A DNA stretch of 64,000 nt from Halorubrum ruber (lineage in GTDB: Archaea; Halobacteriota; Halobacteria; Halobacteriales; Haloferacaceae), in assembly GCF_018228765.1 (NCBI RefSeq), contig NZ_CP073695.1, positions 372,001 to 436,000 on the forward strand. Direction: 5' to 3'. Position 1 is the stretch's first letter. Each line of letters begins with the position of its first letter. Below the pieces are notes generated by a model. It was not told where the DNA came from, ran no database searches, and saw only the letters and a program-made list of their open reading frames with translations. A program made the position numbers and the translations under genes. Positions 5,993 to 46,545 of the stretch are shown here, in pieces.

Positions 5993-6058
5993 TTTATAAG
6001 TGATCGCTCGTGGATTGCTGGTGAACGCTTCCGAAGCCCCAGTCGCTCGTTTATAAAT
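5993..6058 (+). repeat. Mini-unit of the structured repeat family, plus the TATA box of copy B
   Basis: A TATA-like box at 5993-6000 is followed 39 bases later by cgaagccccagtcgctcg at 6032-6049, the start of the larger repeat family, and then directly by a second box tttataaat at 6050-6058. The whole stem region found in full copies is absent. The second box fits as the original promoter of copy B (6747-7000), now split from it by the mobile element at 6063-6712. Confidence 0.6.
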
Positions 6059-6062
6059 CGGT

Positions 6063-6712
6063 GGCTCTTTTGAAATCTTCAGCAAGTGATATATTAATAA
6101 CCCAATCGCGGTCAGTACAGAGGTAGCGGCGAGCGATAACGGGAGTGGGTATCGCAGATCGGTAGCAGCGATTTGGTATTTAAATAGTCGCCAGCGGCGG
6201 CGACTGCCGCTTATAAATAGTCGGCGATGGCGTCGCCGGCGGCTGCGCCGCCGGCTGCCAGAGGCGCGTCGCGCCTCGCTGCGCCTGCGAGCGGCCGGAG
6301 CGAAGCGGAGGCCGCGAGCCAGCCCGCGAGGGAGTCAGTCGCCGGAGCGAAGCGGAGGCGACTGACGAGGTTGGGGAGGCGTGAGGTGCTGTGCGGAGCG
6401 GTGCGGGGCGGGACTCAAAGGGGCAGCCGCGAGGGCGAAGCACGCCGCAGCAAGCACCGCAGCGAGGGAGCGCGAGCGACTGAGCGAGGAGCACAGCAAG
6501 GCGCGCGAGCCGTCGCGGCTGGGGCTTTGGAGGTCGTCAGCGCAACGCGGTCGACCGTTTATAAATAGCCGACAGCAACTCCCCGGTTTCCCGTATAAAT
6601 GGCCTCACTCACGACGTACGACACTGACTCCCGCTATCGATCAAGAAGCAGCTCTCATCGACCGGCTGTTTCAGGGAAGAATATGTCTGTAGAATCGGGT
6701 TTCAACAGAGCC
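6063..6712. mobile_element. Non-autonomous (MITE-like) mobile element, 650 bp, with 8-bp target duplication
   Basis: The left end ggctcttttgaaatctt (6063-6079) is an inverted match of the right end, whose reverse complement begins ggctctgttgaaa (6700-6712). The flanks are aaatcggt at 6055-6062 and again at 6713-6720, a perfect 8-bp target site duplication. Both ends are homologous to the 462-bp element at 55093-55554: about 29 bases on the left, about 55 on the right. No transposase is visible; the interior holds a copy of the structured repeat (6210-6567). The transposase that moves it is unknown. Confidence 0.85.
6210..6567 (-). repeat. Structured repeat copy A (candidate RNA gene), inside the mobile element
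   Basis: Read on the minus strand: TATA-like box at about 6567-6560, conserved CAAAGCCCC from 6529 (spacing 38), degenerate first stem (agccgcga at 6520-6513 with 6432-6425), tttgagtccc block, second stem with 10-bp arms as in copy C, third stem partly diverged, then TTTATAA at 6210-6226. This is the most decayed copy. Open frames across it exist only because the G+C-rich repeat lacks stops. Confidence 0.75.
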
Positions 6713-6746
6713 AAATCGGTGTAAGTAACTCTACGACGGACCCCTC

Positions 6747-7000
6747 CAAAGCCCCAGCCGGGAGGCGGGCGCACGCTCGCTGCGCGCCTCACTCGGTCGC
6801 TATCGCTCCCTCGCTGCGGTGCTTACATCGCCTGCGCCCGCCTCCCGGCTGCCCCTTTGAGTCCCTCCCGGACCGCACAGCAACCGCACCTCACGCCTCC
6901 CCAGCCTCGTCGGCCTCCCTCCGGTCGGCCGACTCCCTCGCGCGTGCGACTCGCGGCCTCCGCTTCGCTCCGGCCGCTCGCAGGCACGCGCCGCCGCGGC
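6747..7000 (+). repeat. Structured repeat copy B (candidate RNA gene)
   Basis: Conserved CAAAGCCCC from 6747. First stem with 18-bp perfect arms agccgggaggcgggcgca (6756-6773) and its complement (6833-6850); tttgagtcc block; second stem gtcggcc/ggccgac (6909-6915 with 6927-6933); third stem gcgcgtgc/gcacgcgc closing near 6991. There is no TATA box at the usual distance because the element at 6063-6712 was inserted there; the displaced box is at 6050-6058. Confidence 0.85.
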
Positions 7001-7040
7001 GTCGATACGCATTTGTTTGCTGCGAAGCGAACGGCTCGGT

Positions 7041-7196
7041 ATGGTCCTCGGTCTCGTCGTTCCGGCCGCCGTCTCGTTCGTGTTCGCCGCGATCGCGGCG
7101 TACGTGGGTTCCCTCCGCGCGCTGGAGGTCTACTTCGACCCGAATCAGGACAGCGTCTTCCTCATGGACGACCGCGACCCGCCGCAGCGTCCCTGA
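7041..7196 (+). CDS. Small membrane protein, 51 residues, function unknown
   Basis: Reads MVLGLVVPAAVSFVFAAIAA followed by YVGSLRALEVYFDPNQDSVF and a charged tail ending DDRDPPQRP. One clear membrane segment covers residues 3-22, with a short cytosolic or surface tail. It lies between repeat copy B and convergent argF. Codon use is typical for the genome and the longer frame across it (116 residues) is not protein-like. I do not recognise a function; it may be a conserved haloarchaeal small protein. Confidence 0.6.
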   Translation: MVLGLVVPAAVSFVFAAIAAYVGSLRALEVYFDPNQDSVFLMDDRDPPQRP

Positions 7197-7247
7197 CGCC
7201 GCGGTGACCGCGGTCGGCGGTTCGCACTCGTCCTCCGGACCGGCTCC

Positions 7248-8147
7248 TCACTCCTCGCCGAGCAGTTCGACGAGCAGCGCGTTCTGCGCGTGCATCCGGT
7301 TTTCCGCTTGGTCCCAGACGAGGGCGCGGTCGGATTCAAGCACGTCGTCGGTGACCTCCTCGCCGCGGTGCGCGGGCAGGCAGTGCATCACTTTAGCGTC
7401 GGTGCCGGCGAGCAGGTCCGAGTTCACCTGGAACCCGTCGAAGGCGGCGAGCTTCTCGTCGCGTACGTCCTCCTGGCCCATCGAGATCCACACGTCGGTG
7501 TAGACGACGTCAGCCCCCTCGACCGCGGCTTCCGGATCGGTTGTCGGCTCCACGTCCAGCCCGAACTCCGCGGCGCGGTCGAAGACGGAGGGGTTCATTC
7601 CGTAGTCGGCGGGCGTGGCGACCTCCACGTCGATTCCGGCCATCGCGGCGCCGACGACGAACGACTGGCCGACGTTGTTACCGTCGCCGACCCACGCCAC
7701 CGTCGCGTCCTCGCTGACCGTCTCGCGGATCGTGAGCAGGTCCGCGAGCGTCTGGCAGGGGTGCGCCTCGTCGGTGAGCCCGTTGATCACGGGGCAGTCG
7801 GCGTACTCCGCGAGCACCTCGACGTCCTCGTGGTCGAAGAGGCGCGCCATCACGCCGTCGACGTAGCGGCCGAGGACGCGCGCGGTGTCCTTCAGGGGCT
7901 CGCCGTGCCCGAGCTGGATGTCGTCGGGGCCGAGGAACATCGCGTGGCCGCCGAGTCGGGTCATCCCCGTCTCGAAGGAGACCCGGGTGCGCGTCGAGGG
8001 CTTCTCGAAGATCATCCCGAGCGTCGCGTCCGCCAGTCGGGGGTCCGTCTCGCCCGCCTTCATCGCGGCGGCGCGGTCGAGCAGGGCGTCCAATTCGGCG
8101 GGCGTCACGTCGTCGATGTCGAGGAAGTCGTCGGTGGCGAGTGGCAT
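7248..8147 (-). CDS. argF: Ornithine carbamoyltransferase
   Basis: Makes citrulline from ornithine and carbamoyl phosphate. The 299 residues show the carbamoyl-phosphate loop EKPSTRTRVSFETG (about residues 49-62), the DEAHPCQTLADLLT segment and the ornithine-binding MHCLPAHRGEE motif. Length matches the family. It is the last gene of the arginine run, 71 bases after argE. The first downstream ATG would lose the N-terminal helix, so ATG 8147 is kept. Confidence 0.97.
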   Translation of the reverse strand: MPLATDDFLDIDDVTPAELDALLDRAAAMKAGETDPRLADATLGMIFEKPSTRTRVSFETGMTRLGGHAMFLGPDDIQLGHGEPLKDTARVLGRYVDGVMARLFDHEDVEVLAEYADCPVINGLTDEAHPCQTLADLLTIRETVSEDATVAWVGDGNNVGQSFVVGAAMAGIDVEVATPADYGMNPSVFDRAAEFGLDVEPTTDPEAAVEGADVVYTDVWISMGQEDVRDEKLAAFDGFQVNSDLLAGTDAKVMHCLPAHRGEEVTDDVLESDRALVWDQAENRMHAQNALLVELLGEE

Positions 8148-8218
8148 CGTGTGTGGTGTGAGAGTGTGTGTCGTGGTATTGTTCGAAAACGAGCGGTGAC
8201 GAGGGGCAACGAGGCGCG

Positions 8219-9382
8219 TTACAGTCGCTTCCGGCAGACCTCGGTCAGCACGTCCACGGCGCGGTCGAGGTCCGGCAGCGGGAGCCGCTCGTCTGGCGCG
8301 TGGTCGAGATCGGAGTTGCCGGGGCCGTAAGTGACCATCGGGCAGTCCCACGCGGCCGCGAAGAGGTTCATGTCGCTCGTGCCGGTCTTCCGGAGCAGGC
8401 GCACGTCGCCGTCCGCGCCCCGGATCGCGACGCGGAACGCGCGCGCGAGGTCGGTCCGCGGGCTCTCCATCACCGGCGGCATCGGCTCGCCCCAGTGGAC
8501 GGAACCGGTCGACAGCTCCGCCTCCGCCAGCTCGTGGATCTCGTCGACCGGGCGCGAGGGCGGGATCCGGAGCTGGACGTCCATCGTCGCCTCCACGGCG
8601 AGCCCGTCGTCGCTCAGCCCGCCGTCGACCGAGATGGGCTTCGTCGTCACCTGGTCGAACACGGCGGTCTCGGAGTCGTCTGGGGTAAACGCCTCCTCGA
8701 CGCCGTGCCACCAGTCGATCGCGTGCTGGATCGCGTTCGGCTCCGGCCGCGAGGAGTGGCCCGACTCGCTCGTGTTCACGTACGTCCCCTCAAGCAGGCC
8801 GCGGTAGCCGAGCGTGATCCCCTGCCAGCCCGACGGCTCGCCGTTGATCACCGCCTCGGGCGCGTCGCGGTCCTCGATGAGGGCGCGCGCGCCGCCGGAG
8901 TCGACCTCCTCGCGGACGACGCCGGCGAACGAGACCCCCGTCTTCACCGCCGCGACCGCCATCGAGACGAGCGGTCCCGTCGCGTCGACCGCGCCGCGGC
9001 CCCACAGCACGGGGTCGCCAGGCTCGCCGACGCGGACGTCCGAGGGCTCCGGCAGTTCGCCCTCGGCCGGTGCCGGCCGCACCTCGACCGGGATGTCGCC
9101 CGGGACGGTGTCGATATGCGAGGTGAGGAGGACGGCGTCGTTCGCCGGCGCCCGGACGTTCCCGACCTCGTCGATCCACGCCTCCCGGCCGTTCGCCTCG
9201 AAGAAGTCGACGAGGCGCTCGGCCGCCCGCTCCTCCTCGCCCGACGGCGAGGGGATGGAGACCATGTCGTACAGCAGCTTGCGGGCGGGCGTGTCGCAGG
9301 CCGCGGGGTAGCCGCCGCCGGCGACGACGTCGGTGCCGCCCTCGGATTCGGCGTCGGCTTCCCGCTCCGTGCCGGCCGCCAT
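8219..9382 (-). CDS. argE: LysW-carrier ornithine (or lysine) hydrolase, ArgE/LysK type
   Basis: Zinc peptidase that releases ornithine from the LysW carrier protein as the last step before ArgF. The 387 residues include the metal-site segment TSHIDTVPGD near residue 88, LWGRGAVDATGPL and INGEPSG. The short alanine-rich, acidic N-terminus looks non-conserved. Its start overlaps the argD stop by one base (TGATG), so translation is coupled. Context with lysW and argX points to ornithine release; activity on LysW-lysine is possible. Confidence 0.92.
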   Translation of the reverse strand: MAAGTEREADAESEGGTDVVAGGGYPAACDTPARKLLYDMVSIPSPSGEEERAAERLVDFFEANGREAWIDEVGNVRAPANDAVLLTSHIDTVPGDIPVEVRPAPAEGELPEPSDVRVGEPGDPVLWGRGAVDATGPLVSMAVAAVKTGVSFAGVVREEVDSGGARALIEDRDAPEAVINGEPSGWQGITLGYRGLLEGTYVNTSESGHSSRPEPNAIQHAIDWWHGVEEAFTPDDSETAVFDQVTTKPISVDGGLSDDGLAVEATMDVQLRIPPSRPVDEIHELAEAELSTGSVHWGEPMPPVMESPRTDLARAFRVAIRGADGDVRLLRKTGTSDMNLFAAAWDCPMVTYGPGNSDLDHAPDERLPLPDLDRAVDVLTEVCRKRL

Positions 9383-10509
9383 CAGCCGACCACCTCCTCG
9401 ATCGCGTCGACGACGGCGTCGGCGTGCTCGCGCTCGATCGTCAGCGGCGGCAGCAGGCGCAGCACGGTCCGGCCCGCCGGGAGCGCGAGGATCTGGTGGT
9501 CGATCGCGAGGTCGCGCAGCAGGCGGTTCGACCCGCGGCGGACCTCGATCCCGACCATCAGCCCGTCGCCGCGCACGTCGCGGACGTCGTCGCCGAGGCG
9601 GTCGCGGAGCTCGCCGCGGAGGTAGCTCCCGATCTCCTCGGCGTGGTCGGCCAGCTCCTCGCGCTCGATCACGTCGAGGGTGGCGCCCGCGGCCGCGGAG
9701 ACGACCGGGCCGCCCGAGAACGTCGAGCCGTGGTCGCCCGAATCGTCCGCGATCCAGTCGCGGCACAGCGTCGCGCCGATCGGGAGCCCGCTGCCGAGCC
9801 CCTTCGCGGTCGTGAGGATGTCCGGCACCACGTCGTGGCGGTCGGCCGCCCACATCGAGCCCGTGCGGCCGAGCCCGGTCTGGATCTCGTCGAGGATCAT
9901 CGCGGCCCCGCTCGTCGCGGTCGCGACCCGGACGGCCTGGAGGTATTCGGTCGAGACGGGGTTGATCCCGCCCTCGCCTTGGAGCGGCTCGAGGATTACC
10001 GCGGCGGTGTCCTCATCGACCGCCTCGCGCATCGCGTCGGCGTCGCCGTACTCGACGAACTCCACGCCGCCGGCGAGCGGGCCGAACCCCTCCTTGTACT
10101 TCTCTTTCCACGTCGTCGCGAGGGTCCCCATCGTCCGTCCGTGGAACCCCTGCGTGGTCGCGATGATCTTCTCGCGGCCCGTTGCGTGCCGGGCGAACTT
10201 CAGCGCGGCCTCGTTCGCCTCGGTGCCGGAGTTACAGAGCCAGACGTTGTCGACGTCGCCGGGCGCGACCTCGGCCAGCCGCTCGTACAGTGCCGTCCGC
10301 GCCGCGTGCGGGTACGACGCCTGGACGTACATGAGCTCCTCCAGCTGGCTCGTCGCGGCGTCGACGACCTCGGGGTGGCAGTGGCCGACCGGCGTACACG
10401 CGTAGCTGGCGCCGAAGTCGAGGTACTCGGTGCCGTTCGCGTCGGTCACGTGGACCCCGTCGCCGGACGCGATCTCGATCGGCTTCTCGGAGAAGACGAA
10501 GCCGCTCAC
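9382..10509 (-). CDS. argD: LysW-glutamate-semialdehyde (acetylornithine-type) aminotransferase
   Basis: PLP-dependent class III aminotransferase of the ornithine branch, 375 residues. Visible are NSGTEANEAALKFAR, the FHGRTMG loop, LDEIQTGLGRTG and the PLP lysine in TTAKGLGSGLP. It starts with GTG at 10509, overlapping the argB stop as GTGA. In this context the substrate should be LysW-bound glutamate semialdehyde rather than N-acetylglutamate semialdehyde (inference from lysW and argX). Confidence 0.95.
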   Translation of the reverse strand: MSGFVFSEKPIEIASGDGVHVTDANGTEYLDFGASYACTPVGHCHPEVVDAATSQLEELMYVQASYPHAARTALYERLAEVAPGDVDNVWLCNSGTEANEAALKFARHATGREKIIATTQGFHGRTMGTLATTWKEKYKEGFGPLAGGVEFVEYGDADAMREAVDEDTAAVILEPLQGEGGINPVSTEYLQAVRVATATSGAAMILDEIQTGLGRTGSMWAADRHDVVPDILTTAKGLGSGLPIGATLCRDWIADDSGDHGSTFSGGPVVSAAAGATLDVIEREELADHAEEIGSYLRGELRDRLGDDVRDVRGDGLMVGIEVRRGSNRLLRDLAIDHQILALPAGRTVLRLLPPLTIEREHADAVVDAIEEVVG

Positions 10510-11459
10510 GCGGTCTCACCCCCGTCGGTCTCGACGGCGCCGCTCTCGTCGGCCTCCTCGGCCTCGCCGCCGTCCGCGCCGTCGCCCAGCGCCGACCGCT
10601 CGATCGCCGTCCCCTCGCCGCCGAGCGCGGCGACGACCGGGTCGCGGACGTTGGCGTCCGCGATCACGACGCGGCCGGATCCGCCTTCGAGCGCCTCTTT
10701 CGCGGCCATCACCTTCTTGCCCATGAACCCCTCGGCGGCGTCCTCGACGGCCGACAGCTGGTCGGGCGTCGCGGCCGCGTCGATGCGCGTCTCGGGGTCG
10801 TCCGGGTCGGCGTACACGCCGGAGACGTCGGTCAGCAGGACGAGGTCGGCGCCCAGAGCGCCCGCTATCGCGGCCGCGGCGCGGTCGGCGTCCGCGTTGA
10901 CCGGGGTGACCTCGCCGTCGCCCTCGTCGCCAGCCATCGGCGGCGAGACGACCGGGGTGTAGCCGTCGGCGAGGAGCCCGCTGAGCAGGTCGGCGTTCAC
11001 CGACTCGATCTTCCCCGAGTGGTCGCCGCGCCGGATCTTCCGCTTCCCGTCCTCGACGACGCGGACCGCCGACTTACGCGGGCCCGCGAGGAGCCCGCCG
11101 TCGATGCCCGAGAGGCCGACCGCGTCGACCCCGGCCGAGCGGAACTCCGCCGTCAGCTCGGTGTTGAGCTTCCCCGCCATCGCCATCGAGAACGCTTCCA
11201 TCGTCTCCGCGTCGGTGAAGCGGCCGGTGACGCCCGACGCGGACTCGACGTACTCCGGCTCGATGCCGAGCCGTTCGAGCGTCTCGTCGACGACCGTCGA
11301 GCCGCCGTGGACGACGACGACCGCGCGCCCGTTGGCCGTCAGGTGCGCGACGTCGCCGACCGCGCCGGCCGGGTCGACCGCCTTCGCGCCGCCGACCTTG
11401 ACGACGACCGGAGGCTCGTCCGCGGGCGCGTCGCCGGCGGCGGACTGCCCTCCCGTCAT
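10506..11459 (-). CDS. argB: LysW-glutamate kinase (acetylglutamate kinase family)
   Basis: Amino-acid kinase fold protein, 317 residues. It shows VVVKVGGAKAVD near residue 18, VVVHGGSTVVDETLE, the lysine-rich IRRGDHSGKIESVNADLLSGL and VNADADRAAAAIAGAL. It phosphorylates the side chain of carrier-bound glutamate. A 30-residue acidic tail after AIERSALGDG is low complexity. It overlaps argC by four bases (ATGA), again indicating coupled translation. Confidence 0.95.
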   Translation of the reverse strand: MTGGQSAAGDAPADEPPVVVKVGGAKAVDPAGAVGDVAHLTANGRAVVVVHGGSTVVDETLERLGIEPEYVESASGVTGRFTDAETMEAFSMAMAGKLNTELTAEFRSAGVDAVGLSGIDGGLLAGPRKSAVRVVEDGKRKIRRGDHSGKIESVNADLLSGLLADGYTPVVSPPMAGDEGDGEVTPVNADADRAAAAIAGALGADLVLLTDVSGVYADPDDPETRIDAAATPDQLSAVEDAAEGFMGKKVMAAKEALEGGSGRVVIADANVRDPVVAALGGEGTAIERSALGDGADGGEAEEADESGAVETDGGETA

Positions 11460-12505
11460 GGCGATCCCACCGGGTGGAGCCCGTCGAACTCGAGGCCGGC
11501 GGTCTCGGGCAGTCCGAGCGCGACGTTCGCCGCGTGGACCGCCTGGCCGGCGGAGCCCTTGGTCATGTTGTCGATGGCCGAGAAGACGACGACGCGCCGG
11601 TTCCCGGGGTCGAGCTCGAAGCCGACCTCGCCGTGGTTCGTCCCGGCGACCGACTTCGGCTCGGGGTAGCGGTAGACGCCGCCCCCGCCCGAGACGATCC
11701 GCATGAACGGCTCGTCGGCGTAGGCGTCGCGGTACGCGCCCCACAGGTCCCCCTTCGAGACCGGCTCGTCGGGGAAGGCGTGGCAGGTCGCGCTCGCGCC
11801 GCGCACCATGTCGACCGCGTGGACCGTGAAGGAGACGGAGAGCCCGAGGTACGCCTCGATCTCCGCCTCGTGGCGGTGACCGGTGGGCGCGTACGGGCGC
11901 ACGACGCCCGAGCGCTCCGGGTGCGAGGAGGCCGCGCCGCCGCCGGCGCCCCCCTCCGAGGAGCCGACCTTCACGTCGACGACGACCTCGCCCACGTCGG
12001 GACCGAGCGCGCCCGCGTCGACCAGCGGCTTGAGGCCGAGGATCGTCGCAGTCGCGTTGCAGCCGCCGCCGGCGATCAGGTCGGCGCCGGGGAGGTTCTC
12101 GCGGTTCAGCTCCGGGAGCGCGTACTCGGCGCGTTCGAGGTACTCCGGCGACTCGTGGCCGTCGTACCACTCGTCGTAGGCGTCGGCCTCGGGGAGCCGG
12201 AAGTCCGCCGAGAGGTCGACGACGGTGTCCGCGGCCTCGAAGAACTCGTCTATCCGCTCCATCGAGACGCCGTGCGGCGTCGCCGCGAACAGCACGTCGA
12301 CCGATTCGAGGTCGTCGGGGTCCGAGAAGCGCAGGTCGAGCCCGCGCAGGTTCGGGTGCGACCGTCCGACGGTCATGTTGTCCGCCGACCGCGAGGTGGC
12401 CTGGACGACCTCGAAGTCGGGGTGGCCGGCGAGGATCCGCAGCAGCTCGCCGCCGGTGAACCCGGTGCCGCCGACGACGCTCGCGGTGTAGGCGTCGTCG
12501 GTCAT
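11456..12505 (-). CDS. argC: LysW-glutamyl-phosphate reductase
   Basis: NADPH-dependent reductase of carrier-bound glutamyl phosphate, 349 residues. The Rossmann start SVVGGTGFTGGELLRIL, the active-site cysteine in GGGCNATATI and the KVGSSEGGAGGG loop are clear. ATG at 12505 overlaps the argX stop (ATGA). All five genes argX to argE are translationally linked in this way, so they form one operon. Confidence 0.96.
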   Translation of the reverse strand: MTDDAYTASVVGGTGFTGGELLRILAGHPDFEVVQATSRSADNMTVGRSHPNLRGLDLRFSDPDDLESVDVLFAATPHGVSMERIDEFFEAADTVVDLSADFRLPEADAYDEWYDGHESPEYLERAEYALPELNRENLPGADLIAGGGCNATATILGLKPLVDAGALGPDVGEVVVDVKVGSSEGGAGGGAASSHPERSGVVRPYAPTGHRHEAEIEAYLGLSVSFTVHAVDMVRGASATCHAFPDEPVSKGDLWGAYRDAYADEPFMRIVSGGGGVYRYPEPKSVAGTNHGEVGFELDPGNRRVVVFSAIDNMTKGSAGQAVHAANVALGLPETAGLEFDGLHPVGSP

Positions 12506-13431
12506 GCGCTCGCCTCCTCGCTTTCTTCGCTGCCGTCTCCCTCGGCCAGCTCGACCGCCTTCGCCTCCAGCCAGTCGACGACCCGCGCGGGGACGTCGAC
12601 GTCGGTGGCCGAGTCGAGCGCCTTGAACTCGACGGTGTGGTTCACCTCGTGGACGGTGTAGTCGTCCGCGCTGGTCTCGGCGGGGTCGGTGTCCGGGTCG
12701 ACGCCCACCTCCATCAGGTCGACGCCGAGCATGCCGCCGCCGACCGCGGCCGAGGCCTTCTCGACCAGTTCGGTCGCGCGCTCGTCGAGGTCGAACGACT
12801 TCGTCTCGCCGCCCTTCGCGGCGTTCGTGAGCCAGTGGTCCGACGACCGCGTCATCGCCGCGACCGGCTCGCCGTCGACCGCCAGCACGCGGATGTCGCG
12901 GCCGGGCTTGTCGACGAACTCCTGGACGTAGAACACCTTGTGCTCGTAGTGGCCGAGCGTCTCCTTGTGCTCTAAGATCGCTTCGGCGGCGTTGCGCGAG
13001 TCGATCTTCGCCATCAGGCGCCCCCACGAGCCGGTGACCGGCTTGAGAACGCACGGGTAGCCGAACTCCTCGATCGCCTCCAGGGCGGCGTCCTTGGTGA
13101 ACGCGACCTCGGTCGCCGGGGTCGGGATGTCGGCCTCGGCGAGCGCGAGCGAGTTCTTCGCCTTGTCGGCGCAGATGTCGCCCGTCTCCGGGGAGTTCAC
13201 GACGGGGACGCCGTAGCTGTCGATGAAGCGCGTCGCGTACAGCGACCGGCTCGTGGACAGGCAGCGGTCGACGACGATGTCGAGGTCGTCGACGGCCGCC
13301 GTGGTCGACTCTAAGCCGAACCGCTCCTTGCGCACGTCGATCTTCTCGACCTCGTGGCCCCGCTCGCGGAGCTCGTTGAGGAGCAGCTTCTCGTCCTTCC
13401 GGATCCGCGAGTAGAGGATTCCTACGCGCAC
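12502..13431 (-). CDS. argX: Glutamate-LysW ligase ArgX (RimK-type ATP-grasp)
   Basis: Joins the alpha-amino group of glutamate to the C-terminal glutamate of LysW, starting carrier-bound ornithine synthesis. The 309 residues show the LysX/RimK pattern: GYPCVLKPVTGSWGRLM, VFYVQEFVDKPGRDIRVL and the metal-binding VHEVNHTVEFK. GTG at 13431 is chosen because a strong Shine-Dalgarno sequence GGAGGGG lies just upstream. Whether it also acts on alpha-aminoadipate for lysine cannot be told from sequence alone. Confidence 0.92.
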   Translation of the reverse strand: MRVGILYSRIRKDEKLLLNELRERGHEVEKIDVRKERFGLESTTAAVDDLDIVVDRCLSTSRSLYATRFIDSYGVPVVNSPETGDICADKAKNSLALAEADIPTPATEVAFTKDAALEAIEEFGYPCVLKPVTGSWGRLMAKIDSRNAAEAILEHKETLGHYEHKVFYVQEFVDKPGRDIRVLAVDGEPVAAMTRSSDHWLTNAAKGGETKSFDLDERATELVEKASAAVGGGMLGVDLMEVGVDPDTDPAETSADDYTVHEVNHTVEFKALDSATDVDVPARVVDWLEAKAVELAEGDGSEESEEASA

Positions 13432-13698: not shown

Positions 13699-13724
13699 CG
13701 TGGCAGACACTCGTCCTCGAATAG

Positions 13725-17016: not shown

Positions 17017-17100
17017 TAAAGCTCTAGTCGCTCGCTTATAAATGGCTGCTAGCGGATCGCCGGCGAACTCCTCCAAATCTCCAGTCGCTCGCTTATAATT
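17017..17100 (+). repeat. Tandem mini-units of the structured repeat family
   Basis: Two shortened units precede copy C: ctaaagctctagtcgctcgc (17016-17035) followed by ttataaat (17036-17043), then caaatctccagtcgctcgc (17074-17092) followed by ttataatt (17093-17100). The spacing from the box at 17036 to 17074 is 38 bases, as in full copies. The last box is the presumed promoter of copy C. From 16741 to about 16960 upstream I see no gene or repeat. Confidence 0.65.
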
Positions 17101-17130: not shown

Positions 17131-17391
17131 CAAAGCCCCAGCCGGGAGGCGCGCGCACGCTCGCTGCGCTCCTCGTCGCTCGTTTCACTCGCTCCTGCGG
17201 TGCTTACGTCGCCTGCGCGCGCCTCCCGGCTGCCCCTTTGAGTCCCGCCCCCGCACAGCGACCGCACCTCACACCTCCCCAGCCTCGTCAGTCGCCTCCG
17301 CTTCGCTCCGGCGACTGACTCCCTCGCGCGTGCTCCTCGCGGCCGCCTTCGGCGGCCACTCGGAGGCACGCGCCACCGCGCCGCTTTTTAT
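17131..17391 (+). repeat. Structured repeat copy C (candidate RNA gene)
   Basis: CAAAGCCCC from 17131, 38 bases after the box at 17093. First stem agccgggaggcgcgcgca (17140-17157) pairs with 17214-17231 and differs from copy B at paired positions with pairing kept. Second stem gtcagtcgcc/ggcgactgac (17287-17296 with 17310-17319). Third stem gcgcgtgc...gcacgcgc with an inner ggccgcc/ggcggcc hairpin. The end caccgcg is followed by ctttttataag (17384-17393). Confidence 0.88.
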
Positions 17392-33171: not shown

Positions 33172-33472
33172 GTTTATAAACAAACGCGGTGGCGCGTGCC
33201 TCCGAGCGCCCTGTGGGCGCGAGGAGCACGCGCGAGGGAGTCGCGAACGCCCGCAGGGCGTGAGCGACGAGGCTGGGGAGGTGTGAGGCGCGGTTGCTGT
33301 GCGGGGCGGGACTCAAAGGGGCAGTCGCGAGGCGGGCGCAGGCGACGCCAGCACCGCAGCGAAGGAGCGAGCAGGGCGAGCGACTGAGCGAGGCGCGCAG
33401 CGAGCGTGCGCCCGCCTCGCGACTGGGGCTTTGGAGGTGTTCGCCGACGATCCACTGTTGATCATTTATAAG
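33172..33472 (-). repeat. Structured repeat copy D (candidate RNA gene)
   Basis: Minus strand: cttataaat box at 33472-33465, CAAAGCCCC from 33433 (spacing 39). First stem agtcgcgaggcgggcgca (33424-33407) pairs with 33340-33323. A second stem (gtcgc/gcgac with inner acgccc/gggcgt) and a third stem (gcgcgtgc/gcacgcgc with inner gcgccc/gggcgc) follow. The end caccgcg is followed by tttataaac (33182-33172). A mini-unit (CAAAGCCCAAGTCGCTTGC) stands just upstream at 33490-33473. It lies between divergent hisG and uvrB. Confidence 0.88.
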
Positions 33473-37107: not shown

Positions 37108-37222
37108 TCAGCTTCCCGGCCGCTCGCTTTCGGTCTCTAAGTCGGTGTTGCGGTCGGCCTCGCGGGTCGCCGCCTCCTGCTTGGCGAGGCCGACGTTGTC
37201 CGAGTTCCGGGTCTCGTCGGTC
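37108..37222 (-). pseudogene. Displaced 3' end of the band-7 (SPFH) gene
   Basis: These 115 bases align without gaps to 40372-40486, the end of the intact band-7 gene, with 105 of 115 identical. The frame is kept through its stop and would encode a tail ending TREADRNTDLETESERPGS against TREADRDIELESESERPGT. No gene body precedes it. The two copies flank the nrdBA segment (37223-40371), so this looks like the original gene end left behind when that segment was inserted. Confidence 0.85.
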
Positions 37223-40351: not shown

Positions 40352-40371
40352 CCGCTAACCCGTAGTCGGGC

Positions 40372-41592
40372 TCACGTCCCCGGCCGCTCGCTTTCGCTCT
40401 CTAACTCGATGTCGCGGTCGGCCTCGCGGGTCGCCGCCTCCTGCTTGGCGAGGTCGACGTTGTCCGAGTCCCGAGTCTCGTCGGTCCGCAGGTCGCTGTC
40501 GGCCACGGTGTCGAGCTGTTCGAGGGCGCTCTCGATGTCCTCTAACCCGAGCAGCTTCTCTGTCTCCTCGTCGAACTCCTTGCCCTCCAGTCCCTCCATC
40601 TGCTGGACGTCGGAGCCGGAGAGGGCCTTGCCGTAGCGCCCCACCAGACTCGTGAGCTCCTGCGGGAGGACGAAGGTGGTCGACTCGCCTTTCCCGATCT
40701 CTTCGAGCGTCTCCATGCCGCGCTCGATGATGGCGCGCTCACCCATCGACTCCGCGGAGCGCGCGCGGAGGACGGTCGAGATGGCGTCCCCCTGCGCTTC
40801 GAGGATCTGGCTCTGTTTCTCCCCCTGCGCGCGGATGATGTTGGACTGCTTGTCACCCTCGGCCTGCTCGACGGCGGAGCGGCGTTCCCCCTGCGCTTCG
40901 AGGATCATCGCGCGGCGGCGGCGCTCGGCGCCGGTCTGCTGCTCCATCGCGCGCTGGACCTCCTGGGAGGGGCTCACCTCGCGGACCTCGACGGCCTCGA
41001 CGCGGATCCCCCACTCGTCGGTGGGCTCGTCGAGCTCCTCGTTGATCCGGTCGTTGATCAGCTCCCGCTGTGAGAGCGTGTCGTCGAGCTCCATGTCGCC
41101 GATGACGGCGCGGAGGGTCGTCTGCGCGAGGTTCGAGACGGCGTTCTTGTAGTCGTCGACCTCCAGAAAGGCCTTCTTCGCGTCCATCACCTTGATGTAG
41201 ACGACCGCGTCGGCGGTCACCGGGGAGTTGTCCCGGGTGATCGCCGACTGGCTCGGGACGTCGATCGTCTGGGTCCGCATGTCGAACGCGTACGTCCGCG
41301 AGACGAACGGCGGAATGATATGGACGCCCGGCTGGAGCAGCTTCCGGTACTCGCCGAAGACGGTGAGCGCCTCCTTGTCGTAGGCGTCGACGATCTCGAC
41401 GGCGCTGACGACCGTGACGGCCGCGAGCAACACCGCGAGCGCCGCGACGCCGAAGACGAGGCTCTGCCCGAGGAGGGCGACCCCGACGAGGAGGGCGACG
41501 CCGAGCGCGAGGTACTGCCAGACCCCGTCCGGGATCTCCGACAGCACGTCCTCCAGCTCGGCGGACTCGCCGCGCGGACCTTGTGTTCCCAT
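40372..41592 (-). CDS. SPFH/band-7 (stomatin-like) membrane protein
   Basis: 406 residues. Two hydrophobic segments (about 27-45 and 47-65) are followed by the band-7 domain (AYDKEALTVFGEYRKLLQPG to about 250, with GIRVEAVEVREVSPSQEVQRA). Then come a Glu/Ala-rich coiled coil with repeated AQGE/AQGD units and an acidic tail. It probably scaffolds membrane proteins or a protease. Its last 115 bases are duplicated at 37108-37222, so the tail may have come with the nrd segment. Confidence 0.93.
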   Translation of the reverse strand: MGTQGPRGESAELEDVLSEIPDGVWQYLALGVALLVGVALLGQSLVFGVAALAVLLAAVTVVSAVEIVDAYDKEALTVFGEYRKLLQPGVHIIPPFVSRTYAFDMRTQTIDVPSQSAITRDNSPVTADAVVYIKVMDAKKAFLEVDDYKNAVSNLAQTTLRAVIGDMELDDTLSQRELINDRINEELDEPTDEWGIRVEAVEVREVSPSQEVQRAMEQQTGAERRRRAMILEAQGERRSAVEQAEGDKQSNIIRAQGEKQSQILEAQGDAISTVLRARSAESMGERAIIERGMETLEEIGKGESTTFVLPQELTSLVGRYGKALSGSDVQQMEGLEGKEFDEETEKLLGLEDIESALEQLDTVADSDLRTDETRDSDNVDLAKQEAATREADRDIELESESERPGT

Positions 41593-41752
41593 ACGCGAAG
41601 TTACGGCCGAACGCTGTTAACGGTTGGCACGAGTTCGGTACCGCTGGGCGCGTCGCGGGCTCGGCCCGCCGCCTCGGGGGCGATATCAGAGATAGCGGAA
41701 ACGCCCGCGTATGCCGGTCGGGTTTAACTACGCGGCGGCGGAACACCGACCC

Positions 41753-43054
41753 ATGCCATCCGACGAGGACGACGACCGGAAATTCAGCACGCGAAGCGTC
41801 CACGCCGGCTCGGAGCCGGACCCGGCGACCGGCGCCCGCGCGACGCCCATCTACCAGACGACCGCCTACCAGTTCGACGACGCCGACCACGCCGCGGACC
41901 TGTTCGCGCTCGAAGAGGCCGGCAACGTCTACTCGCGGCTGATGAACCCGACCAACGCCGCCCTCGAGGAGCGGATCGCCTCGCTGGAGGGGGGCGTCGG
42001 CGCGGTCGCGACCGCCTCGGGCATGGCCGCGCTCGACGTGACGACGTTCCTGCTCGCCTCGGCGGGCGACAACATCGTCACGTCGTCGGCGCTGTACGGC
42101 GGCACCTACACCTACCTCACCCACTCCGTCGAGCGCCGCGGGGTCTCGACTCGCTTTGTCGACCCCCTCGACTACGAGGGGTACGCCGAGGCCATCGACG
42201 AGGACACCGCCTACGTCCACCTCGAAACGATCGGCAACCCCGCCCTCGTCACGCCCGACATCCAGCGGATCGCCGACATCGCGCACGACCACGGCGTCCC
42301 GCTGTTCGTCGACAACACGTTCGCGACCCCGTACCTCTGCCGGCCGCTCGAACACGGCGCCGACCTCGTCTGGGAGTCGACGACCAAGTGGCTCACGGGC
42401 AACGGCACCACGGTCGGCGGCGTCGTCGTCGACGGCGGCTCGTTCCCGTGGGCCGAGCACGCCGAGAAGTACCCGGAGATCGCGCAGGACAACCCCGCCT
42501 ACCACGGGATCAACTTCGCCGAGCGGTTCGGCGACGCCGCCTTCACCTTCGCGGCGGTCACCCGCGGCCTGCGCGACCTCGGCGACCAGCAGTCGCCGTT
42601 CGACGCGTGGAACACGCTCCAGCAGACGGAGTCGCTCCCGCTGCGCATGGACCGCCACTGCGAGAACGCGGGCGTCGTGGCCGAGTACCTCGCGGACCAC
42701 GACGATATCGCGTGGGTGAACTACCCCGGCTTAGAGAGCCACGAGACCCACGAGGAGGCCAGCGAGTACCTGGACGGAGGCTACGGCGGAATGCTCACCT
42801 TCGGGCTGGAGGCCGGCTACGAGGCGGCGCGGGCGACCGTCGAGGAGGCGGACCTCGCCTCGCTGGTCGCGAACGTCGGCGACTCGAAGACGCTCGTCAT
42901 CCACCCGGCGTCGACGACCCACCAGCAGCTGACCGAGGAAGAACAGGAGGCCGCGGGCGTCACCGACGACATGGTGCGGCTGTCGGTCGGCATCGAGGAC
43001 CCCGCGGACATCGTCGCCGACTTAGAGGCGGCCATCGAGGCGGCAACGCAGTAA
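41753..43054 (+). CDS. metY: O-acetylhomoserine sulfhydrylase (homocysteine synthase)
   Basis: 433 residues, Cys/Met metabolism PLP family. TRSVHAGSEPDPATGARATP and YSRLMNPTNAALEERIASLE open the domain; the PLP lysine is in VWESTTKWLTGNGTTVGGVV. The long form with FAERFGDAAFTFAAVTRGLR fits sulfhydrylases rather than cystathionine gamma-synthase. ATG 41753 is 27 bases after a gggtttaac box. No metX is adjacent here. Confidence 0.9.
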   Translation: MPSDEDDDRKFSTRSVHAGSEPDPATGARATPIYQTTAYQFDDADHAADLFALEEAGNVYSRLMNPTNAALEERIASLEGGVGAVATASGMAALDVTTFLLASAGDNIVTSSALYGGTYTYLTHSVERRGVSTRFVDPLDYEGYAEAIDEDTAYVHLETIGNPALVTPDIQRIADIAHDHGVPLFVDNTFATPYLCRPLEHGADLVWESTTKWLTGNGTTVGGVVVDGGSFPWAEHAEKYPEIAQDNPAYHGINFAERFGDAAFTFAAVTRGLRDLGDQQSPFDAWNTLQQTESLPLRMDRHCENAGVVAEYLADHDDIAWVNYPGLESHETHEEASEYLDGGYGGMLTFGLEAGYEAARATVEEADLASLVANVGDSKTLVIHPASTTHQQLTEEEQEAAGVTDDMVRLSVGIEDPADIVADLEAAIEAATQ

Positions 43055-43060
43055 CCGCGG

Positions 43061-43852
43061 TCACTCTGGGGACCGACATTCGATGAGTTTCCCGTTTTCC
43101 GGGGCTGAATCCGTAGACTCTGTTCGCCGAACTGCGTATTCTGTGACATAATACAGAATTTCTTCCTCCCAAAGACCGCCATCAGAGGTCGCTATCCTGA
43201 ATTCGAGGAGTACGGGTGTCCCCTCGACATCGAAATATGCGTATTCCGGCCCGCCTGAAGAGGATTCGATGGTCGAGGCATCCGGCGAGAGAGCCGCGAT
43301 CAACTCAGAATATTGTTCTATCTTCGAGTCATCGACAGAATCCGCCTCAACTCTATTGACTGCGGCTGACTCAAGCAATCCGCGGAGAAGTTGATCATCA
43401 ACCTCCTCAATTGGGACGTAGGTCGGATCGCCGGGTAGGTCACTGCTCTCCAACCGGTCGGTAATCTTCGGAATGCCGTCCGAGTCGACTTCGTATGCGT
43501 TCAGGCTCCCCGATGCCTCATAAACGTCAGCACTCACAACCAGCGTTACTCGATACCCGTCAGCAACTCGCTCTGGTTCTCGTTCCACTCTGGCAGAATA
43601 ACTGGAAGAGGACCATGGAGGCTGTAGATCGCTATTATGGGATCGATACGCCACTTCGTACGTTTTAGCAAAATCGGCGACGGCATCTGCGTTCAGATTT
43701 TGTGGCCACTGGACATCCAGATTCTGCGACGTGGGGCACTGATCCGGGAGCTCGTCTTCGCTTGGTGGTTGCGAGTTGCCAGACGCAGTACAGCCGGCAA
43801 GGCCGACACTAGCGAGACTCACCAATACGGCACGTCGAGTATGAGATGTCAT
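43061..43852 (-). CDS. Putative lipoprotein, function unknown
   Basis: 263 residues. MTSHTRRAVLVSLASVGLAG followed by C is a lipoprotein signal; the paired Arg residues suggest the Tat route. The mature part is acidic and polar, with WPQNLNADAVADFAKTYEVA and a C-terminal beta-rich half. Codon use is more A+T-rich than in metY or the aminopeptidase. The upstream extension to 43903 is ignored because a cttatcag box lies 27 bases before ATG 43852. The region 43904-44103 holds no visible gene. Confidence 0.72.
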   Translation of the reverse strand: MTSHTRRAVLVSLASVGLAGCTASGNSQPPSEDELPDQCPTSQNLDVQWPQNLNADAVADFAKTYEVAYRSHNSDLQPPWSSSSYSARVEREPERVADGYRVTLVVSADVYEASGSLNAYEVDSDGIPKITDRLESSDLPGDPTYVPIEEVDDQLLRGLLESAAVNRVEADSVDDSKIEQYSELIAALSPDASTIESSSGGPEYAYFDVEGTPVLLEFRIATSDGGLWEEEILYYVTEYAVRRTESTDSAPENGKLIECRSPE

Positions 43853-44103
43853 TAACAGAAAAATCCTTGCCGGCTGATAAGTCTCTTGTGTGAATCCGCT
43901 CAAGTGTTCTCAACACCGGAGACCGTACGACCCGTACGAGGTGTCCACGTATACTGAGCGACCACTCTCTCCCGTGGGTCGGCCTCGGTCTATGTCGCAT
44001 TCGCGCTCTGTATTCAGCACGCCTCTAAGAACATATCACCGGTTATGGATTTCAACGGCGCCGCCGGTCCCTCTTTCTCTCGCCGAGCTATCGTCCTCCC
44101 GAC

Positions 44104-45243
44104 CTACTCTTCGAACCCGTCCTCCCACCGGAACGTCCCGTTCCGCTGGACGACCTCGCCGTCGACTTCCATCCGGGAGCGCTCGCTCACGTCCGAGATC
44201 ATGTCGACGTGGACCGCGCTGTCGTTGCCGGACTCGCCCTCCGGGAGGCAGGCGTCGTAGGCGCGGCCGACCGCGAGGTGGACGGTGTCGCCCATCTTCT
44301 CGTCGAAGAGGATCGAGTCGGTGAAGCGGTCGATGCCGCGGTTCATCCCGATCCCCAGCTCGCCGAGTCGCCGGGCGCCGTCGTCGGTGTCGAGGATGTC
44401 CGCGAGCGCGTCCTCGCCCGCCTCGGCCGAGAAGTCGACGACCTCGCCGTCCTCGAACGCGAGGTGGACGTTCCGGACGCGCGTCGCGTCGATGGTCATC
44501 GGCACGTCGAAGAACGCCTCGCCCTCGGTGTCGTAGGGGGCGGTGAACACCTCGCCGCTCGGGAGGTTGTGCGAGTCGTACGCGACGGAGGCCGCGGAGT
44601 TCACCGCGGTGCGGCCCGCGATCGACATCGAGACGTCGGTGTCGGGCGCGTCGTCGCGCTCGGTGACGATCCGGACCTCGTCGCCGGCGTCGAGGACGTC
44701 TTTCATCTGCGCCATCTCCTCGGCGAGCGACTCCCAGTCGCGGAGGACCGCGTCGTAGACGAACTCCTGGTACTCCTCGTATGCCATCCCCGCCTGCTGA
44801 GCGAGCGAGCGCGTGGGGTGGACCGTCGACACCCAGTCGGTGTCCATCCGCGCCTCGCGGACGCCCTTGCGGGCCTTCGCGTACGCCTGCCGCGTCGGGC
44901 GGTCGACGTCGGCGGTCGCGGTGGTGTTGCGCCCGCCCCCGATCCGGAGATAGGCGTCGGCGGCCTCGAAGACCGCGCGGTCGACGGCGGGGTCCGCGTC
45001 GAAGTCCTCTGCGTCGACGTCGCCGTCGGTTCCGGCCTCGATGCCTTTTAAATAGGCGCGGGAGAGTTCGCTTGACCCGTACAGCGTCGTCACGTTCGCG
45101 CCCCGTTCGCCGAGCGCCTCGGCGACCGCGACGCCCAGCTCGTGGGCGTCCTCCGCGACGCTCACGACGACGTCGTCGCCGGCCTCGACCCGTGCGCTCC
45201 AGTCGACGAGCACCTCGGCGTGCTCGCGTACGCGTTCGTCCAT
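44104..45243 (-). CDS. M29-family (thermophilic-type) aminopeptidase
   Basis: 379 residues. The C-terminal metal-site segments are present: VDFSAEAGEDALADIL with FDEKMGDTVHLAVGRAYDAC (the Glu and His ligands) and SAVHVDMISDVS (His and Asp). The N-terminal domain begins MDERVREHAEVLVDWSARVE. It removes N-terminal residues from peptides with two metal ions. A gatttacgc box lies about 27 bases before the ATG. Confidence 0.92.
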   Translation of the reverse strand: MDERVREHAEVLVDWSARVEAGDDVVVSVAEDAHELGVAVAEALGERGANVTTLYGSSELSRAYLKGIEAGTDGDVDAEDFDADPAVDRAVFEAADAYLRIGGGRNTTATADVDRPTRQAYAKARKGVREARMDTDWVSTVHPTRSLAQQAGMAYEEYQEFVYDAVLRDWESLAEEMAQMKDVLDAGDEVRIVTERDDAPDTDVSMSIAGRTAVNSAASVAYDSHNLPSGEVFTAPYDTEGEAFFDVPMTIDATRVRNVHLAFEDGEVVDFSAEAGEDALADILDTDDGARRLGELGIGMNRGIDRFTDSILFDEKMGDTVHLAVGRAYDACLPEGESGNDSAVHVDMISDVSERSRMEVDGEVVQRNGTFRWEDGFEE

Positions 45244-45350
45244 TACGCTGTGTGTGTTCGGGGAAGCGTAAATCGATGCCGGGACGGTGATTGTTTATAA
45301 TCGGTCGGCGCCGTATCGGGAACGAGTCCCGCTGGCTGCTGAGTTGGTGG

Positions 45351-45701
45351 TTTATAAATGGCGGATCGGGGATCGGCGGCGACCACCGCCAAAGCCCCAG
45401 TCGCGAGGCGGGCGCACGCTCGCTGCGCTCCTCACCCGGTCGCTACCGCTCCCTCGTTGCGGTGCTTACGTCGTCATCAGAACGCTCCGCGTTCTGATTG
45501 GCTCACGAGAGCTCTGCTCTCGTGAACGCCTGCGCCCGCCTCGCGACTGCCCCTTTGAGTCCCACCCCGCACGGCACCGCCCCGCACCTCTCACCTCCCC
45601 AGCCTCGTCGCTGGCGGCTGGCGCCGCCAGCGACTCCCTCGCGCGTGCTGCTCGCGGCCTGCCGGCCGCTCGCAGGCACGCGCCACTGCGCTATTTAAAA
45701 G
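45351..45701 (+). repeat. Structured repeat copy E (candidate RNA gene) with two extra hairpins
   Basis: tttataaa box at 45351, CAAAGCCCC from 45390 (spacing 39). First stem agtcgcgaggcgggcgca (45399-45416) pairs with 45531-45548. Inside it are two extra perfect 10-bp hairpins (45476-45485 with 45489-45498; 45503-45512 with 45516-45525) not present in other copies. Second stem gtcgctggcgg/ccgccagcgac (45607-45617 with 45624-45634). Third stem as in other copies, then ctatttaaaag (45691-45701). Confidence 0.88.
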
Positions 45702-45737
45702 CTCGCGGGAGAGGCGAGGAGTCCGTTACGGAAGTGT

Positions 45738-45777
45738 AAGGAGAAAGCTCCGCCCTTCAGCGCGGGGAGGATGTCAA
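45738..45777. mobile_element. Probable leftover right end of an IS200/IS605 (tnpB) element
   Basis: The stretch aaagctccgcccttcagcgc followed by ggggaggatgtcaa has the form of a tnpB-element right end: an imperfect C-rich/G-rich hairpin, then gaggaNgtcaa. The intact element in this window ends the same way (minus strand gaggaggtcaa, 55932-55922). Nothing else of an element remains here; it abuts the stop codon of the ArsR-like gene. Confidence 0.45.
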
Positions 45778-46187
45778 TCCTCGGTCGAACTGTCGTACAT
45801 CGCTTCGAACTCCGCTTCGCCGCGGATCAGTTCGTCGACGCCGCTCGTGAGCGTTACCTCGCCGAACACCGTCGCTCGGTAGTACGTGTAGAGGCCGTCC
45901 GCTCCTCGCTCGGTGTGTTGGCGCTTTTCGACGAGGCCGGCGTCGACCAGTTTGTTGAGGTGGTAGTGGAGGGTACTGTCGTCGACCTCGATAGCGTCCT
46001 CCAGTTCTTTGGGGCTCATGTCGTCGCTGTGGACGAGTCGATAGAGAATTTCGTACCTGGTGCGGTGTCCGACCGCTGCGTGCATCGCCAGGTACTCGTC
46101 GAGGCTGAGGACGCTGTCCTCGGGCAGCAGGTCTTCGGGATCCTCCGGGAATCCTGCGCCGGCGGGCTGCGAGTGATTCGTCGCCAT
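45774..46187 (-). CDS. ArsR-like winged-helix transcriptional regulator
   Basis: 137 residues. After a 45-residue acidic start comes a winged helix: HAAVGHRTRYEILYRLVHSD, MSPKELEDAIEVDDSTLHYH (recognition helix) and LNKLVDAGLVEKRQHTERGA, the usual haloarchaeal pattern. No cysteine cluster for metal sensing is seen. Start 46187 is followed by polar residues; a cttaaaag box lies at about 46223-46231. Targets are unknown. Confidence 0.85.
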   Translation of the reverse strand: MATNHSQPAGAGFPEDPEDLLPEDSVLSLDEYLAMHAAVGHRTRYEILYRLVHSDDMSPKELEDAIEVDDSTLHYHLNKLVDAGLVEKRQHTERGADGLYTYYRATVFGEVTLTSGVDELIRGEAEFEAMYDSSTED

Positions 46188-46254
46188 CGTAGTGTTTCGT
46201 ACGAGGGAGGGATGCTTAGGCTCTTTTAAGCCAAAGTTTCTCAAAAAAGCCGTC

Positions 46255-46545
46255 TTTTAAATACTGACGGAAGATCATCGGTGAAGACCGCCAAAGCCCC
46301 AGCCGTGAGGCCGGCGTACGCTCGCTGCGTTCCTCAGTCGGTCGCTAGCGCTCTCTCCTTGCGGTACTTGCGTCGCCTACGCCGGCCTCACGGCTGCCCC
46401 TTTGAGTCCCACCCCGCACAGCACAGCGCCTCACACCTCCCCAGCCTCGTCGCTCGCGCTTAAAAGCGCTCGCGACTCCCTCGCGCGTGCGACTCGCGCC
46501 CTGCGGGCGCTCGTCGGCACGCGCCACCGCGGGTCGTTTAAAAAC
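46255..46545 (+). repeat. Structured repeat copy F (candidate RNA gene)
   Basis: ttttaaat box at 46255, CAAAGCCCC from 46292 (spacing 37). First stem agccgtgaggccggcgta (46301-46318) pairs with 46378-46395; five or more paired positions differ from copies B to E and all remain paired. Second stem gtcgc/gcgac with inner gcgct/agcgc. Third stem gcgcgtgc/gcacgcgc with inner gcgccc/gggcgc. The end caccgcg is followed by cgtttaaaaac. Confidence 0.88.

What the first reader, a model, noticed from the sequence alone, without database searches (positions are those of the whole stretch)
5993..46545. Dispersed structured element with its own TATA box at fixed distance: candidate new RNA gene family
Six copies lie between genes (A 6210-6567 minus, B 6747-7000, C 17131-17391, D 33172-33472 minus, E 45351-45701, F 46255-46545). 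The distance from the first base of the TATA-like box to the C of CAAAGCCCC is 38 (A), 38 (C), 39 (D), 39 (E) and 37 (F). In mini-units it is 39 (5993 to 6032) and 38 (17036 to 17074). After the stems each copy ends with caccgcg or a variant and a T-rich TTTATAA/TTTAAAA tract. A fixed promoter distance, a common body of about 250 bases and a T-rich end suggest a transcription unit starting about 8 bases before CAAAG. I know of no described haloarchaeal RNA of this form.
Basis: partly seen in the sequence, partly recalled or inferred. Interest (0 to 1): 0.87.

Follow-up and report, generated by a model that had tools for sequence, protein, structure and literature searches.

The report
Haloarchaea-wide mobile hairpin repeat family
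The six "RNA genes" are copies of a hairpin-rich repeat spread through the chromosomes of many salt-loving archaea; its fold is strongly conserved on the strand opposite to the one proposed, and the promoter-like box, part of a repeated tail unit, was not seen in the other genera examined.

Summary
The six copies are real, but they are 6 of 185 anchor hits in this Halorubrum-like genome. Their core is one long hairpin, P1 (118 nt). A covariance model of P1 hits 101 of 155 genomes of the order; all 26 hits in a phylum control of 196 genomes lie in that order. Covariation is overwhelming: 108 matches from named haloarchaeal contigs, 95.6% of cells paired, 21 of 24 pairs changed on both sides, 0 of 500 shuffles as good. 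Rfam has no match.

The promoter reading fails. G·U exceeds A·C on the strand opposite to the proposed RNA (64:10, 25:5, 71:22), and G-N-A loops and tandem G·A pairs lie there too. The TATA box sits in a 57-bp tandem unit. It is missing from 13 of 72 copies here and from all 134 copies tested outside the genus.

Eleven copies lie between two IS6-like ends, eight of them with near-identical 8-bp flanks. Window copy A is such an insertion; it split copy B from its box.

Best reading: a non-autonomous dispersed element whose core works as a single-strand fold, DNA or RNA unresolved. Transcription is untested.

The parts
6063..6712 (.). composite miniature element carrying copy A: IS6-like ends GGCTCTTTTGAAATCT (6063-6078) and GGGTTTCAACAGAGCC (6697-6712)
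   Evidence: end alignment with 15 other copies and 8-bp flank comparison
6055..6062 (+). 8-bp target duplication AAATCGGT, left copy
   Evidence: sequence; identical to 6713-6720
6713..6720 (+). 8-bp target duplication AAATCGGT, right copy
6134..6146 (+). inner 13-bp inverted repeat CGATAACGGGAGT of copy A
6627..6639 (-). inner 13-bp inverted repeat CGATAGCGGGAGT of copy A
6410..6529 (+). copy A, P1 hairpin (strand given = strand that folds)
   Evidence: row L015:1164-1283 of alignment A1, covariation
6222..6409 (+). copy A, P3-P2-linker part with an inserted double hairpin (approximate 5' limit)
   Evidence: sequence
6747..6996 (-). copy B; P1 is 6747-6865; its 57-bp unit is split by the composite element
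   Evidence: profile hit; junction
17131..17378 (-). copy C; P1 is 17131-17246
   Evidence: profile hit; same place in some relatives
33186..33433 (+). copy D; P1 is 33308-33433
   Evidence: row L035; same place and orientation in 14 of 19 loci
45390..45689 (-). copy E, with an inserted double-hairpin module at about 45474-45527
46292..46531 (-). copy F; P1 is 46292-46410
5993..6049 (+). 57-bp tandem unit with TTTATAA and degenerate CGAAGCCCC, upstream of the split unit of copy B
17036..17092 (+). 57-bp tandem unit upstream of copy C

Best explanation
These are copies of a non-autonomous, dispersed, mobile repeat of haloarchaeal chromosomes. Shown: copy number, spread over the order, strand-specific covariation, conserved tandem G·A pairs and G-N-A loops, facing P1 pairs outside Halorubrum, and an IS6-like carrier with target duplications for some copies in Halorubrum. 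Inferred: the fold is recognised as a single strand by a protein (more likely DNA during replication or transposition than RNA); copies spread as passengers of the IS6-like miniature element, moved by a transposase supplied from elsewhere, and afterwards persist by descent while their ends decay. The TATA-like box belongs to an iterated tail unit of the Halorubrum branch and is not the promoter of an RNA gene.
For: Copy number: 185 anchor hits in this genome, 4-185 in 35 of 35 genomes of the genus. Fold: A1 80 rows, 20 of 31 pairs changed on both sides; A3 40 rows, 97.5% paired, 21 of 24; A4 108 rows, 95.6%, 21 of 24, 0 of 500 shuffles. Strand: G·U vs A·C 64:10, 25:5, 71:22; GA dinucleotides at least 95% invariant beside covarying doublets, loops GNA 30 of 43, 34 of 40, 54 of 74; P2/P3 three-base loops GNA 17 vs TNC 3 of 59. 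Mobility: of 16 nested copies, 11 have both IS6-like ends within 5 of 16 mismatches, and 8 of these 11 have 8-bp flanks at least 6/8 alike, 3 identical. Position is indifferent to gene orientation: 18/8/6 tandem/convergent/divergent against 178/71/58 for all gaps (crude gene calls). P1 neighbours under 300 bp apart: 25 of 26 have 5' ends facing (19 of 19 in A4, 6 of 7 in A3); 18 of the 26 with a 24-35 nt spacer.
Against: The 21 inner inverted-repeat pairs of this genome are only 440-550 bp apart and cannot hold a transposase besides the body, this genome has no PF13610 hit, and none of 25 matches to the outer element spans it without the insert, so the mover is not shown. Only 8 of 16 nested copies show 8-bp flanks alike, and 5 of 16 lack one recognisable outer end. 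At locus D the element is in the same place and orientation in 14 of 19 loci, and 10 P1 copies from there keep 298 of 306 cells paired, which could mean a host function at fixed sites rather than a passenger; gene conversion between copies was not excluded. In that set of 10 the strand signal is weak (G·U 9, A·C 5). G·U tolerance also fits RNA. One P1 pair (L143) has the opposite arrangement. Most copies lack recognisable inner or outer ends.
Confidence: 0.6

Rival explanations
1. A new haloarchaeal non-coding RNA family, transcribed from the strand opposite to the reader's; the RNA folds into P1 (plus P2, P3 in Halorubrum) and acts in trans or with a protein.
For: Strong covariation with G·U preferred over A·C on one strand; conserved tandem G·A pairs; copies at one conserved locus keep their pairs.
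Against: No TTTATAA-like box 30-48 nt upstream of P1 on that strand in any of 31, 9 and 105 copies tested; 3-nt G-N-A loops dominate, and of 15 GNNA 4-nt loops in A1 only 3 are GNRA; up to 185 copies per genome placed without regard to gene orientation; facing pairs with a spacer of about 30 nt leave little room for two promoters.
Confidence: 0.22
2. A REP/BIME-like chromosomal palindrome that serves the host (nucleoid or topoisomerase binding, mRNA ends).
For: Many copies, paired inverted units in other genera; weak matches in only 6 of 72,556 plasmid records and none in the phage collection, each searched with one copy.
Against: A strand-asymmetric fold is not needed for double-strand binding; not tied to gene 3' ends; Y1 transposase, the partner of REPs (recalled), is absent from 7 of 35 genomes of the genus that carry 10-100 anchors.
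Confidence: 0.12
3. One reading: an RNA gene on the CAAAGCCCC strand driven by the TATA box 38-39 nt upstream, ending in a T-rich tract.
For: Box at 38-39 nt in 50 of 72 copies of this genome; a halovirus with 56-58 bp intergenic repeats carrying real promoters is known (PMC8707807, passages read).
Against: Wrong strand for the fold; box absent in 13 of 72 copies here and in 31 of 31 and 103 of 103 outside the genus; T run of 5 or more in 2 of 46.
Confidence: 0.05

Closest known systems
Small mobile repeats (SMR), palindrome-associated transposable elements (PATE) and MITEs of Haloquadratum walsbyi (PMC3119063; passages and sections 25 and 26 read)
   Same: Transposase-free repeats in a haloarchaeal chromosome, many copies, inverted repeats or near-terminal palindromes, one kind nested at preferred sites inside another kind.
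   Different: SMR-A are about 110 bp and target PATEs; PATEs share palindromes with IS605 elements. Here a 118-nt covarying hairpin is shared across 42 of 57 genera searched, and in Halorubrum some copies sit inside an IS6-like element. Sequences were not compared directly, since the paper's tables are not held.
IS6-family MITEs (PMC7986276; passages read)
   Same: Ends with a GG tip, CTGTT and AAA motifs and 8-bp duplications, as in the outer element here.
   Different: The outer element carries a hairpin-rich insert of about 500 bp, found in both orientations.
Bacterial REP/BIME with RAYT (recalled)
   Same: Multi-copy hairpins, often in inverted pairs.
   Different: No link to Y1 transposases; much longer hairpin; iterated 50-57 nt tails.
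Intergenic repeats of halovirus HF2 (PMC8707807; passages read)
   Same: 56-58 bp repeat with a TATA box in a haloarchaeal setting.
   Different: No match of copy D in the phage collection, and here the unit is part of a hairpin element.

Membership tests
Known Rfam RNA family | Score above a curated gathering threshold | tested here: not met
   0 matches in the window and in 9 loci of other genera; the two sub-threshold matches of copy D have E 1.1 and 1.3
Promoter-driven RNA gene (reader) | Transcript from the predicted start | not testable with these tools
   no expression data held
Promoter-driven RNA gene (reader) | Promoter box conserved in family members | tested here: not met
   0 of 31 and 0 of 103 outside the genus; 59 of 72 in this genome
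Promoter-driven RNA gene (reader) | Fold conserved on the transcribed strand | tested here: not met
   G·U vs A·C and loop type point to the other strand
IS6-type MITE (outer element) | Terminal inverted repeats with GG tip, CTGTT and AAA | tested here: met
   both ends in 11 of 16 nested copies, one end in the other 5; motif from passages of PMC7986276
IS6-type MITE (outer element) | 8-bp target duplication | tested here: met
   identical in 3, at least 6/8 in 8 of 16; the other 8 not alike as scored
IS6-type MITE (outer element) | Matching autonomous IS in the genome | tested here: not met
   0 PF13610 in G000; in G015, locus L294, a PF13610 gene lies between two such ends, each with up to 3 mismatches
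SMR of Haloquadratum | Inverted terminal repeats, no target duplication, fixed target in another element | tested here: inconclusive
   13-bp inner repeats at one site of the outer element in 16 of 18 extracted pairs; no empty outer element among 25 matches
REP with RAYT | Y1 transposase present with the repeat | tested here: not met
   0 Y1_Tnp in 7 of 35 genomes of the genus, all with anchors
PATE / IS605-derived | Near-terminal palindromes related to an IS605 element | not tested
   the palindrome tables of PMC3119063 are supplementary and not held

The most novel reading that the evidence does not exclude
P1 is an order-wide haloarchaeal single-strand element: a sequence-conserved fold with Watson-Crick doublets alternating with tandem G·A pairs under a G-N-A loop, and iterated 50-57 nt tails. 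It is used either as ssDNA by an unknown recombinase or replication factor, or as an RNA of an undescribed kind, and it lives in up to 185 copies per genome, often as facing pairs about 30 nt apart.
Probability: 0.45. Interest if true: 0.85.

Novelty: new variant of a known kind. Interest (0 to 1): 0.62.

Why it matters
A structured element found in about two thirds of the sampled genomes of the order (101 of 155), at up to 185 anchor hits per genome and without an Rfam match, should be masked or modelled in haloarchaeal genome studies. If its fold acts as single-stranded DNA, it marks an unidentified haloarchaeal recombination or replication activity. If it acts as RNA, it would be an unusually high-copy archaeal RNA family. 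One strand-specific RNA-seq data set and one ssDNA-binding pull-down would decide. It also shows how nested mobile elements and tandem units can mimic a promoter-bearing RNA gene.

Tried and rejected
RAYT/Y1 partner: rejected, no co-occurrence. Terminator or 5'-UTR regulator: disfavoured, the 32 classified copies follow the background mix of gene orientations (the gene caller is crude, missed some genes such as tatC, and flags one copy as inside a called gene). Cruciform or double-strand binding only, and hairpin self-correction (quasipalindrome repair): disfavoured by inference, because G·U/A·C asymmetry and the retained G·A and GGGG/GGGG mismatches would not be expected under either. Virus origin: none in phages or in two viral-contig scans. 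Autonomous transposase inside the inner repeats: the 21 pairs are 440-550 bp apart, too short; ORFs inside were not searched. Strand bias along the chromosome: not assessed, because place lists were truncated and only a sample of the genome was read. Clean empty site for A/B at the tatC locus: G017 and G023 carry other genes there, so the argument rests on the target duplication and the junction. Literature: ten searches listed no paper that, from title, abstract start or passages seen, describes this repeat; subscription papers are not held. Passages of PMC5018182, PMC7230728, PMC10927574, PMC10264941, PMC7002113 and PMC2864571 were looked at without a match. A tRNA yardstick for G·U frequency was too small to use (73 Watson-Crick, 4 G·U, 0 A·C, 7 other). 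Counts of non-standard cells are not independent events; in A1 one pair gives 34 of the 64 G·U, and without it the ratio is 30:10. Covariance-model alignments A3 and A4 lean towards the model structure; A1 was aligned by MAFFT. A first TATA test outside the genus (0 of 28) used exact heptamers and left out 3 of the 31 matches; one search repeats it on all 31, and on 103 of the 108 rows of A4 that have enough flank, with the criterion used inside the genus.
Full report
What is there. The window is bases 372001-436000 of a single 3.02 Mb contig in a genus of 35 held genomes. All six copies are present. Before it usually lie one or more 57-bp units TTTATAA...GAACACCTCCAAAGCCCCAGYCGCTCGC. The anchor CTGCCCCTTTGAGTCCC (up to 1 mismatch) occurs 185 times in this genome and 4-185 times in 35 of 35 genomes of the genus; that pattern is absent in the other 24 genomes searched.

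The fold and its strand. RNAalifold gives 31 pairs, 20 with both sides changed and the pair kept. Beside covarying Watson-Crick doublets lie GA dinucleotides that are 95% or more invariant (columns 58-59, 62-63, 79-80, 83-84, 87-88); two of these steps face each other as tandem G·A pairs on this strand and would be T·C mismatches on the other. Departures from Watson-Crick pairs are G·U more often than A·C on this strand: 64 to 10 in A1, 25 to 5 in A3, 71 to 22 in A4. In A1 a single pair supplies 34 of the 64, and in ten copies from one locus the ratio is only 9 to 5. Apical loops are mostly G-N-A: 30 of 43 three-base loops in A1 (80 rows), 34 of 40 rows in A3, 54 of 74 three-base loops in A4 (108 rows). 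In P2/P3 of 47 bodies, G-N-A loops outnumber their complements 17 to 3 of 59, and GNNA 10 to 0 of 53.

DNA or RNA. G·U tolerance fits RNA and, less strongly, DNA. Three-base G-N-A loops with tandem G·A pairs are, from recalled literature, typical of very stable DNA hairpins, and of the 15 GNNA four-base loops in A1 only 3 are GNRA. I lean to ssDNA, at little better than even odds.

Spread. A covariance model of P1 (R1) hits 101 of 155 genomes and 42 of 57 genera of the order at E 0.001 or better (at most 23 candidates per genome were scored). Of 196 genomes of the phylum, 26 are hit, and all 26 belong to the same order. Two viral-contig scans found none; with copy D as query, the phage collection gave none and the plasmid collection six weak records, all haloarchaeal. 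On 108 P1 matches from the 80 named stretches, 95.6% of cells pair, 21 of 24 pairs change on both sides, and 0 of 500 shuffles reach any of the five measures; sliding the partner by 1-3 columns drops pairing to 29-46%.

Architecture outside Halorubrum. P1 stands alone or as an inverted pair. Of neighbours less than 300 bp apart, 19 of 19 in A4 and 6 of 7 in A3 have the 5' ends of the folding strands facing each other; L143 is the exception. Eighteen of the 26 have a 24-35 nt spacer (16 in A4, 2 in A3). Tails of about 50 nt starting GGGGCTTTC or alike are iterated there too (L339, L350, L332, L338).

The promoter. In 72 distinct copies of this genome a TTTATAA-like box stands 39 nt before CAAAG in 49, at 38 in 1, at 36 in 8, at 33 in 1, and is missing in 13. 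The box is no better conserved than other parts of the unit. By the same criterion it is found in 6 of 9 same-genus rows of A3, in 0 of 31 other rows of A3 and in 0 of 103 rows of A4; on the folding strand it is found in 0 of 9, 0 of 31 and 0 of 105. With a TATA box starting at -26, as mapped for halovirus HF2 (PMC8707807, passages), the start would lie 12-13 nt before CAAAG. The T-rich end is present in 25 of 46 copies, and a T run of 5 or more in 2 of 46. The fixed spacing is what homology of a tandem unit gives.

Mobility. In this genome 21 copies of the 13-bp repeat CGATNNCGGGAGT form inverted pairs 440-550 bp apart (5 further hits are unpaired). Of the 18 pairs I extracted, 16 sit at one site of a second element with ends like GGCTCTGTTGAAATCC; the body points one way in 10 and the other way in 6. 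Both outer ends are recognisable (at most 5 of 16 mismatches) in 11 of the 16, one end in 5; the 8-bp flanks are identical in 3 and at least 6/8 alike in 8, all among the 11. Such ends and 8-bp duplications are those of the IS6 family (PMC7986276, passages). This genome has no IS240/IS6 transposase hit; a relative has one between two such ends (locus L294). None of 25 matches to the joined outer arms spans the joint. In the window, the composite element 6063-6712 carries copy A, is flanked by AAATCGGT on both sides, and separates copy B from its 57-bp unit; in the junction TTTATAA lies 39 nt before B's CAAAG.

Fate of copies. Between hisG and uvrB (copy D) the element or its linker is present in 14 of the 19 fetched loci that contain both genes, always in the same orientation; 3 of the 14 show the linker only. 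Ten P1 copies from that locus (one, G006, without hisG in view; copies with inserted modules left out) keep 298 of 306 cells paired, with 16 pairs changed on both sides against at most 12 in 500 shuffles. At copy C's place 9 of 30 loci give a profile hit, 8 in one orientation. Internal hairpins are lost or gained. Thirty-two copies follow the background mix of gene orientations, 18/8/6 against 178/71/58 (gene calls are crude). This fits an element that lands between genes and then stays, its structure kept by selection or by conversion between copies; I could not separate the two.

Verdict. The RNA-gene reading is right that the family is structured and unmatched in Rfam, and wrong on strand, promoter and end. 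I file the carrier of copy A and its relatives as IS6-type miniature elements. I do not file the hairpin core under any known family.

Noticed in passing
window 45474-45527; 6222-6290; L037, L041, L053, L060: A double-hairpin module of about 50-57 nt (hairpin, TGGC-like link, hairpin, GAAC or GAC) is inserted at different points of the element. Its two stems differ in sequence from copy to copy, so mainly the structure is shared.
   Followed up: partly
16 nested copies, e.g. L216, L233, L236: The segment between the CGATNNCGGGAGT repeats occurs in both orientations relative to the outer element (10 and 6), which suggests either in-place inversion or repeated site-specific insertion.
   Followed up: partly
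window 37108-37222 and 40372-40486: A 115-bp direct repeat, 91% identical, 3264 bp apart, not part of the hairpin element.
   Followed up: no
L339, L350, L332, L338: Iterated tail units of about 50 nt starting GGGGCTTTC or alike also occur outside Halorubrum, without a TATA box.
   Followed up: partly
L121 1510-1979 (Halobaculum sp. XH14 plasmid): Two P1 copies in inverted orientation with linker and P2/P3-like hairpins between them, intermediate in form between the Halorubrum element and the short pairs of other genera.
   Followed up: partly
G014 and G019 at the argG locus (L170, L176); G009 at hisG-uvrB (L063): Internal deletions that join P3 or the linker to the end of P1, as if copying had skipped across hairpins.
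   Followed up: no
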